Assembly: GCF_036855935.1 (NCBI RefSeq)
Contig: NZ_JASPFK010000001.1
Span: 250,501 to 314,500 of the forward strand
Length of the DNA stretch: 64,000 nucleotides
Direction of reading: 5' to 3'
Source: Sphingomonas sp. LR60
GTDB taxonomy: Bacteria; Pseudomonadota; Alphaproteobacteria; Sphingomonadales; Sphingomonadaceae
Program-made: the position numbers and the translations under genes
The notes under the pieces: model-generated
Told to the model about the DNA's origin: nothing
Seen by the model: the letters and a program-made list of their open reading frames with translations, nothing else
Databases searched by the model: none
Shown: one piece after another, positions 4,342 to 51,647 of the stretch
Layout: every line of letters begins with the position of its first letter
Numbering within the stretch: the stretch's first letter is position 1

Positions 4342-4796
4342 TCAGGGCCGTATCATCAGCCCTTCGGTCTCGATGATACCGATCGCGTGGACCAGATGGT
4401 CGTCCCCAAACGTGTAGCGGATCGCGCGCGTGCGATAGCGCGGGTCGGCGATCACCCCCGCCGGCACGTCCGAGCGATCGTCGCATTCGTCGAGCACGAG
4501 GATCGAATCCCACCCCGGCGTGTAACTGATGACGTGGCGGTCGAGCTTGCCCAGCCGGTGCCGCTCCATCGCCACCCACGCCGCCTTGTCGTGCGCGACC
4601 GGTGCGCCGTTGATCGTGACCGCCAGGTCGGGCGCGAGATCGGCGGCATAGGCGTCGAAGGTCGCCGCCGTCGCGGTCGGTACGACCTGCGCGATGGCTG
4701 CCATGATATAATCGGGCGGCGGGGGGCCGGGGAGGCGGTGGCCACATCCGGTAGCACTGCCGCCAGCAACAGGACCAATCCCTTCGCCACCATCAT
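4342..4796 (-). CDS. Secreted NTF2-like (SnoaL-like) protein, frameshifted as sequenced
   Basis: Two overlapping frames together make one gene. From ATG at 4796, preceded by a GGAGG site, one frame gives a signal peptide (MMVAKGLVLLLAAVLPDVATAS). The other frame continues from PDYIMAAIAQVV through an NTF2/SnoaL-like fold (FDAYAADLAPDLAVTING and onward) to the stop at 4342. The switch is at a run of six G (4721-4726 on the plus strand). One extra base restores a single 151-residue reading, and the length becomes a multiple of three. Function is unknown; such folds act as small-ligand binding domains or enzymes. See the frameshift finding. Confidence 0.6.
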
Positions 4797-4882
4797 TCGC
4801 CGCCTCCGACCTTCCGATGGTAGGGCAAGATGCTCCGCTGCGGGGTGGCTGGCAACGCCGATGATCACGCAAAGCCGCTCCC

Positions 4883-4974
4883 GTCATTCCCGCGAAGGCG
4901 GGAATTCAGACGCGCAGGTTTTCGCAAGAGGCGAAACGTCAGAGGTTCTGGATCCCCGCATTCGCGGGGATGAC
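4883..4974. repeat. Intergenic palindromic repeat, family A
   Basis: Arms CATTCCCGCGAAGGCGGGAA and GGATCCCCGCATTCGCGGGG flank a centre containing CGTCAGAGGTTCTGG, the same centre motif as the copy at 4192. It lies between the two divergent NTF2-like genes. Confidence 0.85.
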
Positions 4975-5040
4975 GGAGTTTGGTGGATAGCGGTCGACCA
5001 AGTTCAGGTGCAGACAATTGCGATTTGTCAGGAGGTTTTG

Positions 5041-48453: not shown

Positions 48454-48459
48454 CGCCGC

Positions 48460-51400
48460 ATGTCGCGCTTTTTCATCGACCGGCCCATCTTCGCATGGGT
48501 CATCGCCATGGTGCTCATGCTGGCGGGGATCATCGCGATCCGCAGCCTGCCGATCGCCCAATTCCCCGAGATCGCGCCCCCGGCGGTCGCGATCGCCGCC
48601 ACCTATCCGGGCGCCGACGCCGAAACGCTCGAGCGCACCACCACGCAGATCATCGAGCAGCAGCTGCGCGGCATCGACAATCTGCGCTACTTCTCGTCGT
48701 CCTCCTCGTCGGCGGGCGTGGTCACGATCACGCTGACCTTCGAACAGGGCACCGATCCTGACATCGCGCAGGTGCAGGTTCAGAACAAGTTGCAGGCGGC
48801 GACGCCGCTGTTGCCGCAGGAAGTGCAGCGGCAGGGCATCCAGGTGACCAAGTCGGCGGCCAGCTTCCTGGCGGTCGTCGGGCTCGTCTCCACCGACGGC
48901 TCGCACAGCAACAACGATCTGGCCGACATGGTCGTGTCGAAGTTCCAGGATCCGATCAGCCGCATCAACGGCGTCGGCGAGTTGCAGGTGTTCGGCTCGC
49001 AATATGCGATGCGCATCTGGCTCGATCCGCTCAAGCTCAACAATTACGCGCTGACCGTCGCCGACGTGACCTCGGCGGTGCAGGCGCAGAACGCGCAGGT
49101 CTCCGCCGGTCAGATCGGTGCGCAGCCCGCCCCCAAGGAGCAGATGCTCAACGCGACCGTCTCGGTGCAGTCGCGGCTCCAGACACCCGAGCAGTTCGGT
49201 AATATCCGGCTGAAGACGGGGACGGACGGCGCGGTGGTTCGCCTGCGCGACGTCGCGCGGATCGAGATCGGTGCCGAGAATTACGGCTTCGACGTGCAAT
49301 ATAACGGCAAGCCGGCGTCGGGCTTCGGCGTCCGCCTGGCGGCGGGTGCCAACGCGCTCGACACCGTCGACCTGCTCAAGGCGCGCGTCGCCGACATCGG
49401 CAAGACGCTGCCCCCCGACGTGAAGGTCATCTATCCTTACGACATCACGCCGTTCGTGCGTCTGTCGGTGGAGCAGGTGATCCACACGCTGATCGAGGCG
49501 GTGGTGCTCGTCTTCCTCGTCATGTTCCTGTTCCTCCAGAACTGGCGCGCGACGTTGATTCCGACGATCGCGGTGCCGGTCGTGCTCCTCGGCACCTTCG
49601 CGGTGATGGCGCTGGCCGGATACACGATCAACACGCTGACCTTGTTCGGCATGGTGCTGGCGATCGGCTTGCTCGTCGACGACGCGATCGTCGTCGTCGA
49701 GAACGTCGAGCGCCTGATCGTCACCGAGCATCTCTCCCCGAAGGAGGCGGCGCGCAAGTCGATGGACGAGATCAGCAGCGCGCTGGTCGGCATCGGGCTT
49801 GTGCTGTCGGCGGTGTTCCTGCCAATGGCGTTCTTCGGCGGCTCGACCGGCGTGATCTATCGCCAGTTCTCGATCACGATCGTCTCGGCGATGGTGCTGT
49901 CGGTGCTGGTCGCCCTGATCCTGACGCCGGCGCTCTGCGCGACGATCCTCAAGCCGCACGACCCGAACAAGCAGGAAGGCAGGGGCCGCTGGCTCGCTTC
50001 TTCCGCTGGTTCAACGACAAGTTCGATAGCGCGCAGCATCGCTACGAGGGCGGGGTGAAGAGCACCGCGCGCCATTGGAAGCGTTCGCTGTTCGTCTATC
50101 TGCTGATCGTCGCGGGCATGGCGCTGATCTTCATCCGGCTGCCTTCGGGCTTCCTGCCGGACGAGGACCAGGGCTTCGTGATCGCGCTGGTGCAGGGACC
50201 GGCGGGCGCGAGCAGCGCGCGCACCGACAAGGGGCTGGCGATCACGCGTGACCACTTCCTCAAGCAGGAAGGCAAGAACGTCCAGGGCGTCTTCACGATC
50301 AACGGCTTCAGCTTCGCAGGACAGGGCCAGAACACCGGCCTCGTCTTCGTCAACCTGAAGCCGTGGGAAGACCGTTCGGGCGGCGACAATCGCGCACAGG
50401 CGATCGTCGGCCGTGCGATGGGCGCGCTGTCGCAATATAAGGACGGCTTGATCTTCGCGCTGATCCCGCCCGCGGTGCAGGAACTGGGCAACGCGACCGG
50501 CTTCGACGTGCAGCTGGTCGATACCGGCGGCATCGGACACGAAAAGCTGGTGCAGGCCCGCAACATGATGCTCGGCATGGCCGCGCAGGACAAAAGGCTG
50601 GCACAGGTCCGCCCGCTGAGCCTGGAGGACGCGCCGCAGCTCAAGGTCAAGATCGACGAGGACAAGGCGCGCGCGCTCGGCCTCGATCTGTCGGCGGTCA
50701 ATACGACGATCGCGACCGCATGGGGCGGCGGGTACATCAACGACTTCATCGACCGCGGTCGCGTGAAGCGCGTGTATGTCCAGAACGACGCGCCGTATCG
50801 CATGTCGCCCGAGGATGTCGGTGAACTCTACGTTCGCGGTGCGAACGGGCAGATGGCGCCGTTCACCGCTTTCTCGACGCTCGAATGGGCCAATGCGCCG
50901 GTCTCGCTGACCCGCTACAACGGGCAGCCGGCGATGCAGCTGCAAGGCTCGCCGGGGCCGGGGCAGAGCACCGGTGCCGCGATGGAAGCGTTGCAGGAAA
51001 TCCATGCGAAGCTGCCCCCGGGCACGACGCTGGAATGGACCGGCCTTTCCTATGAGGAACGGCTGTCGGGCGGGCAGGCGCCGGCGCTGTACGGGCTGTC
51101 GCTGCTGATCGTCTTCCTTTGCCTTGCCGCGCTGTACGAAAGCTGGTCGGTGCCGATCTCGGTCCTGCTGGTCGTCCCGCTCGGCATCATCGGTGCGGTG
51201 CTCGCCGCATGGCTGACCGGGCTGAACAAGGACATCTACCTGCAGGTCGGGCTCATCACCACGATCGGCGTGTCCGCCAAGAACGCGATCCTGATCGTCG
51301 AATTCGCCGAAGAGCGGATCGCCGAGGGGCTGAGCGCCTTCGACGCGGCGGTGGAGGCGGCCAAGCTGCGCTTGCGCCCGATCCTGATGACCAGCCTCGC

Positions 51401-51647
51401 CTTCGTGTTCGGCGTGATGCCGCTCGCGATATCGACCGGCGCGGGTGCGGGTGGCCAGAACGCCATCGGCCGCGCGGTGGTCGGCGGCATGTTGTCCGCG
51501 ACGGTGCTGGCGATCTTCTTCGTGCCGATGTTCTTCGTCGTCGTGCTGCGCTTGTTCGGGCACGGCAAGGACGAGAAGACGCCGCACGACGACGCGCCTG
51601 CCCATGACGATCGTCCCACGGGCGACACCGCCCATCAGGGAGCCTGA
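48460..51647 (+). CDS. RND efflux inner-membrane pump (AcrB/MexB type), frameshifted as sequenced
   Basis: A hydrophobe/amphiphile efflux pump. The first frame starts SRFFIDRPIFAWVIAMVLML and includes GIDNLRYFSSSSSSAG, FLVMFLFLQNWRATLIPTIAVPVVLLGTF and GLLVDDAIVVVENVERL, the proton-relay Asp pair. It breaks at GGGG 49982-49985 in the cytoplasmic loop and stops at 50058. The +1 frame carries on through LARFFRWFNDKFDSAQHRYE, KSTARHWKRSLFVYLLIVAG, the second porter half and KNAILIVEFAEERI to 51647. One extra G gives 1062 residues, normal for the family. As written it would make two halves; a restart at 50055 is visible but has no strong ribosome-binding site. Confidence 0.92.

What the first reader, a model, noticed from the sequence alone, without database searches (positions are those of the whole stretch)
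4342..51647. Five genes broken by the same kind of lesion: one missing G/C in a short homopolymer
An NTF2-like gene (GGGGGG at 4721), mutS (GGGG at 10956), the maltose LacI gene (GGG at 19194), bioA (GGGG at 38023) and the RND pump gene (GGGG at 49982) each split into two frames at a G/C run. In every case adding exactly one base gives a continuous, family-typical protein (151, 866, 353, 411 and 1062 residues). Same direction, same base class and both coding strands point to systematic homopolymer under-calling in the assembly. A possible sixth case is the start of the maltose permease (CCCCC at 22850).
Basis: partly seen in the sequence, partly recalled or inferred. Interest (0 to 1): 0.75.

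Follow-up and report, generated by a model that had tools for sequence, protein, structure and literature searches.

The report
Sequencing errors that mimic broken genes
The apparently broken genes in this Sphingomonas sequence are almost certainly read errors: long runs of one base were read one base short, and a second error adds a base at a DNA site that such bacteria usually methylate, so the living cell most likely has intact genes.

Summary
The frame breaks are in the letters, but they are assembly artefacts. The maltose LacI gene is not frameshifted; it only lacks an ordinary start codon, as in two relatives. I found one more break, at 5566-5570. In 465 kb compared with a 90% identical relative, this genome has 25 single-base losses and 15 gains in genes that are whole there; a control pair of genomes has none in 81 kb. 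Losses rise with G/C run length (runs of 5: 7 of 135; runs of 6: 6 of 20), and runs of 7 or more are nearly absent. Gains centre on GATTC, first of 505 words tested and one half of GANTC, the CcrM methylation site; a CcrM-type domain is encoded. Both classes break genes without which a cell cannot live (metG and holB; gyrA), each the only copy found, so they cannot be true. The window shows no excess over the rest of the sample. Most likely source: Oxford Nanopore reads of native DNA without accurate polishing. Ordinary, but many genes of this record are mis-read. Nine of the 25 losses are not at such runs and stay unexplained.

The parts
4721..4732 (-). Frame break in an NTF2-like gene (ORFs 4289-4747 and 4342-4887): two neighbouring G/C runs (4721-4726, 4729-4732), either of which could hold the lesion
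   Evidence: frames; homologue in G048 open across the join; runs
5566..5570 (-).
   Evidence: 9 of 9 relatives that aligned are one base longer; ORF
10956..10959 (+). Frame break near the 3' end of mutS (ORFs 8641-11223 and 10950-11282)
19187..19189 (-). CTG that is the likely start codon of the maltose LacI-type gene (frame 18176-19201); no frame break here
22850..22854 (+). Frame break just after the ATG of the maltose permease gene (ORF 22812-24332)
   Evidence: comparison with G060
38023..38026 (+). Frame break in bioA (ORFs 36955-38046 and 37212-38477)
49982..49985 (+). Frame break that splits an RND pump gene into ORFs 48460-50058 and 50055-51647; described only

Best explanation
The genes are whole in the organism and the deposited consensus is wrong. 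Two systematic base-calling errors survive in it. (a) G/C runs of five or more bases are read one base short, more often the longer the run. (b) At GATTC, one half of the GANTC site that the alphaproteobacterial methylase CcrM turns into N6-methyladenine, a base is inserted, mostly giving GATCTCG. Because such an error repeats in every native read, depth does not remove it. The likely source is Oxford Nanopore sequencing of native DNA without accurate short-read polishing. Shown here: both classes, their dependence on sequence, their bias against this genome, and that they break single-copy genes needed for life. Inferred: the platform, and that methylation causes class (b).
For: Loss by run length against G060: 3 bases 4 of 4679, 4 bases 5 of 1014, 5 bases 7 of 135, 6 bases 6 of 20, 7 bases 1 of 1; reverse direction 5 of 4683, 2 of 1015, 1 of 135, 0 of 15. 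G/C runs of 7 or more: 3 in 800 kb here, 26 in 790 kb of G060, 7 and 4 in 200 kb each of G037 and G009. Sixteen of 25 losses have a G/C run of 4 or more within 5 bases, background 8.0%. GATTC/GAATC first of 505 5-base words for +1: 15 of 289 sites, mean 0.16%. RAMA domain of CcrM type once in G000. metG, holB and gyrA in two frames in G000, whole in 7 of 7 relatives, no other full copy found. Control pair G037/G009: 0 events in 81,463 bases. The window has 3 of the 25 losses in 57,664 aligned bases against 22 in 407,697 elsewhere.
Against: No reads and no record of the sequencing method were available. Nine of 25 losses have no G/C run of 4 or more. At runs of 4 a loss is seen only outside genes (0 of 847 coding, 5 of 167 other), which is ordinary evolution rather than error. 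AAAAA/TTTTT loses more often than CCCCC/GGGGG in the loss scan. Two of 15 gains do not fit GATTC (278466 and 1805160, both within 4% of a gene start). The -1 class alone would also fit PacBio (PMC11649196, passages).
Confidence: 0.93

Rival explanations
1. Real decay in a mismatch-repair-deficient mutator: mutS broke first and G/C runs then lost bases throughout the genome.
For: mutS is itself among the broken genes, and loss rises with run length, as expected without mismatch repair (recalled).
Against: metG and holB, single-copy and indispensable, are broken by the same class. In pure runs of 5 or more, 14 of 156 are shorter and none longer than in G060, while mutators give both (recalled). 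Insertions at GATTC, which break gyrA, are not explained.
Confidence: 0.02
2. Some of the window's breaks are true pseudogenes or true gene splits, for example the NTF2-like gene or the RND pump, among many artefacts.
For: The NTF2-like gene is rare in the genus (3 of 61 genomes, own included), so it may be under weak constraint. The two RND ORFs overlap by four bases, as coupled genes can.
Against: All six breaks lie at or next to G/C runs of 4-6 bases, the class shown to be under-called, and the window's rate equals that of the rest of the sample.
Confidence: 0.05
3. The errors are of PacBio rather than Nanopore origin.
For: PacBio-derived assemblies of a high-GC bacterium had G/C runs of 4-10 bases one base short (PMC11649196, passages).
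Against: The second class at GATTC is easier to explain by a signal that senses the modified base directly; motif errors of this sort are described for Nanopore (PMC6591954 and PMC12392509, passages).
Confidence: 0.15

Closest known systems
Homopolymer deletion errors in long-read bacterial assemblies (PMC11649196, PMC12392509; passages seen)
   Same: One base missing in G/C runs, mostly beyond four to five bases, breaking genes
   Different: Nothing in kind; here the dependence on run length was measured from one assembly and one relative, without reads
Modified-motif basecalling errors, such as Dcm sites in Klebsiella (PMC6591954, passages) and GANTC in Brucella (PMC12392509, passages)
   Same: Errors concentrated at a methylase motif, with a CcrM-type gene present
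   Different: Here mostly a +1 insertion at the GATTC half of GANTC and rarely at GACTC (15 of 291 against 3 of 224 sites); the passages seen do not describe this form
Mismatch-repair-deficient mutator genomes (recalled)
   Same: Shortening of runs that grows with run length; mutS among the hits
   Different: Indispensable genes are hit too, and bases are inserted at GATTC

Membership tests
Homopolymer under-calling artefact | Loss rises with run length and is one-sided | tested here: met
   5 bases 7 of 135, 6 bases 6 of 20; reverse 1 of 135, 0 of 15
Homopolymer under-calling artefact | Long runs are depleted in the assembly | tested here: met
   G/C runs of 7 or more, 3 in 800 kb against 26 in 790 kb of G060
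Homopolymer under-calling artefact | Genes are not spared | tested here: inconclusive
   runs of 6 or more 4 of 12 coding, 3 of 9 other; runs of 5 4 of 110 and 3 of 25; runs of 4 0 of 847 and 5 of 167. Small numbers at the long end, and genes are spared at runs of 4
Homopolymer under-calling artefact | Indispensable single-copy genes are hit | tested here: met
   metG, holB
Homopolymer under-calling artefact | Accurate reads show the longer run | not testable with these tools
   no reads held
Modified-motif basecalling error (CcrM, GANTC) | Errors concentrated at the motif | tested here: met
   GATTC/GAATC 15 of 289, first of 505 5-base words; in the 6-base scan CGAATC/GATTCG (10 of 145) is second by rate after AATCCA (3 of 36)
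Modified-motif basecalling error (CcrM, GANTC) | Both halves of GANTC affected | tested here: not met
   GATTC class 15 of 291, GACTC class 3 of 224, and GACTCG 0 of 138; context may matter to the basecaller
Modified-motif basecalling error (CcrM, GANTC) | The methylase is encoded | tested here: met
   RAMA domain once in G000; of 14 control genomes only Caulobacter. That RAMA marks CcrM is recalled
Modified-motif basecalling error (CcrM, GANTC) | Error vanishes in amplified DNA | not testable with these tools
   needs raw or new reads
Mismatch-repair-deficient mutator | mutS inactive in the cell | not testable with these tools
   frame broken in the letters, by a lesion of the artefact class
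Mismatch-repair-deficient mutator | Gains as well as losses in runs | tested here: not met
   G/C runs of 5 or more, 14 of 156 shorter, 0 longer
Mismatch-repair-deficient mutator | Indispensable genes remain whole | tested here: not met

The most novel reading that the evidence does not exclude
Uncorrected assemblies keep a readable scar of the methylome: +1 insertions at GATTC, and rarely at GACTC, record CcrM methylation of the native DNA, so a methylase's activity could be screened from deposited consensus sequences alone, without raw signal.
Probability: 0.5. Interest if true: 0.35.

Novelty: not a real feature. Interest (0 to 1): 0.13.

Why it matters
By extrapolation (25 losses and 15 gains in 465 kb; genome 3.94 Mb) the record may hold some 300 such errors inside genes; that is an estimate, not a count. 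Anyone reading loss of mutS (a mutator), of bioA (need for biotin), of a pump or of gyrase from this assembly would be wrong. Two simple checks carry over to other records: the spectrum of long G/C runs, and the GATTC word test against one close relative.

Tried and rejected
Rejected: LacI as a frameshift. Rejected: my own first reading that the +1 events were deletions in the relative G060; the whole frame is in G060 (for example gyrA, 923 aa), so they are gains in G000 (the notes are wrong on this and were corrected). Considered: that the base lost in mutS and bioA had interrupted a G run, which would be no homopolymer event; relatives differ at the third base of that mutS codon, so a longer G run in this strain is as possible, and G060 alone cannot decide it. 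Superseded: a codon-usage gene finder, which chose the wrong strand over part of the RND gene; replaced by gene calling from synonymous change. No result: 16S rRNA in the own genome (5,000 N in each 400-kb region); plasmid records for mutS (6 records, at best 82% identical in part); tRNAs in the window (none); Pfam for the two NTF2-like ORFs (none). Dropped before the census counts: clusters of several indels within 90 bases, indels longer than one base, local identity under 0.8, places within 30 bases of a gene end. The permease break fell out this way, and the NTF2-like gene lies where G060 does not align, so the census holds 4 of the 6 window breaks, 3 of them among the 25. Six of the 31 losses are in genes called only in G000 and were left out of the 25. 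Papers: listings; passages only; no whole paper was read. I made no search aimed at the GATTC insertion beyond these.

Full report
What the window is. It lies in a 3.94-Mb, 2-contig assembly of a Sphingomonas: the best named MutS relatives are Sphingomonas, and the genus members G060 and G059 are 92% and 90% identical over mutS. G060 is colinear, reversed, over most of the first sampled region.

The five claims. mutS, bioA and the RND pump each have the two halves of one profile in two frames, and G060 has one open frame for each. For mutS, 26 of 26 relatives compared are one base longer at the same place. The NTF2-like gene has its signal peptide in one frame and its body in another, and its best homologue, in G048, is open across the join. 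LacI is different: one frame is open over 18176-19201 and includes the whole DNA-binding start. G060 and G020 have the same frame, also without ATG, GTG or TTG, while G009, G042 and G037 have an ATG two codons before the same CTG (16 loci examined, 13 of them with an ordinary start in frame). So this gene probably starts at CTG in its clade and no base is missing. The 'possible sixth', the permease start, is a frame break in the letters. A further one lies at 5566-5570. The window so holds six breaks, all at or next to G/C runs of 4-6 bases.

More than chance? I compared 465,361 aligned bases in two regions of the chromosome with G060 (identity 0.909 and 0.896), calling genes from the pattern of synonymous change. 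Uncompensated single-base indels inside genes: 31 losses and 15 gains in this genome, 25 and 15 of them in genes called as whole in G060. The same procedure on the pair G037/G009 gave none in 81,463 bases at 0.923 identity. The window has 3 of the 25 losses in 57,664 aligned bases, the rest of the sample 22 in 407,697: no excess.

Loss class. Sixteen of 25 losses have a G/C run of four or more within five bases (background 8.0%), nine have five or more (background 1.55%). Where both genomes have a pure G/C run with the same neighbours, this genome is one shorter in 4 of 4679 runs of 3, 5 of 1014 runs of 4, 7 of 135 runs of 5, 6 of 20 runs of 6 and 1 of 1 run of 7; in the reverse direction G060 is one shorter in 5 of 4683, 2 of 1015, 1 of 135 and 0 of 15. 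By place: runs of 4 lose a base only outside genes (0 of 847 coding, 5 of 167 other), which looks like ordinary evolution; runs of 5 in 4 of 110 and 3 of 25; runs of 6 or more in 4 of 12 and 3 of 9. So the error sets in at about five bases, and the runs of four seen at mutS, bioA and the pump would be what is left of five. G/C runs of seven or more number 3 in 800 kb here, 26 in 790 kb of G060, and 7 and 4 in 200 kb each of G037 and G009. The loss is not confined to G/C: among 5-base words AAAAA/TTTTT lost a base most often (7 of 72; CCCCC/GGGGG 24 of 568), coding and non-coding not separated. Nine of the 25 losses have no G/C run of four or more within five bases and remain unexplained.

Gain class. 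Eleven of 15 gains read GATCTCG or CGAGATC in this genome, and ten of 15 read GATTC or GAATC at the site in G060 (letters); 13 of 15 fit an original GATTC, two do not. In a scan of 505 5-base words GATTC/GAATC is first with 15 of 289 sites, the mean being 0.16%. By next base: GATTCG 10 of 145, GATTCC 4 of 78, GATTCT 1 of 33, GATTCA 0 of 35; all GACTC words together 3 of 224. These counts include non-coding sites. GATTC is half of GANTC, which CcrM methylates in alphaproteobacteria (recalled). A RAMA domain, the C-terminal part of CcrM (recalled), is found once in G000 and once in G060, and among 14 control genomes only in Caulobacter. That GACTC is hardly affected does not follow from methylation alone.

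Why it cannot be biology. metG lies in two pieces in two frames in G000 and whole in 7 of 7 relatives; the other matches in G000 are 25-37% identical. The same holds for holB (two pieces; other match 32%) and, through the gain class, for gyrA (two pieces; other matches 45% and 37%). pyrH loses the frame of its N-terminus; this is weaker, since a later start can be imagined. accD is hit too, but its copies were not searched and its lesion is not at a run. That metG, holB and gyrA are indispensable is established knowledge. A mutator lineage with a broken mutS would also shorten runs, but could not survive these losses and would not insert bases at GATTC.

Which platform. Passages seen: Nanopore deletion errors that shorten homopolymers beyond four to five bases, and PacBio-derived assemblies with G/C runs of 4-10 bases one base short (PMC11649196); about 70% of Nanopore consensus errors in Dcm motifs for Klebsiella (PMC6591954); [quoted passage not shown] The GATTC class makes Nanopore the best guess; this is inference.

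Verdict. An artefact of a known kind, with one small feature that I did not see in the passages read: a +1 form at GATTC and rarely at GACTC.

Noticed in passing
window 19187-19189 (minus strand): The maltose LacI-type gene has no ATG, GTG or TTG start in frame; G060 and G020 share this, and a CTG conserved in all three is the likely start, two codons after the ATG of G009, G042 and G037.
   Followed up: partly
window 4881-4977, and starts at 641, 28980 and 53619: A roughly 95-base repeat (GTCATYCCCGCG...) with many copies in G060, G059 and other relatives, often in both orientations; it looks like a dispersed palindromic repeat element.
   Followed up: no
G000:C1 143531, 195955, 210542, 220851, 231154, 367393, 1694985, 1729213, 1991433: Nine of the 25 losses lie at no G/C run of four or more; another modified motif, natural change or misalignment could be behind them.
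   Followed up: no
G060:C8:9076-11826: This small contig of G060 carries broken pieces of a second gyrA-like gene, 78-95% identical; it may be a contaminant or another error-rich stretch.
   Followed up: no
window 27966 (G000:C1:278466): One extra base in this genome next to the start of a gene called in G060; it fits neither error class and may lie outside the true gene.
   Followed up: no
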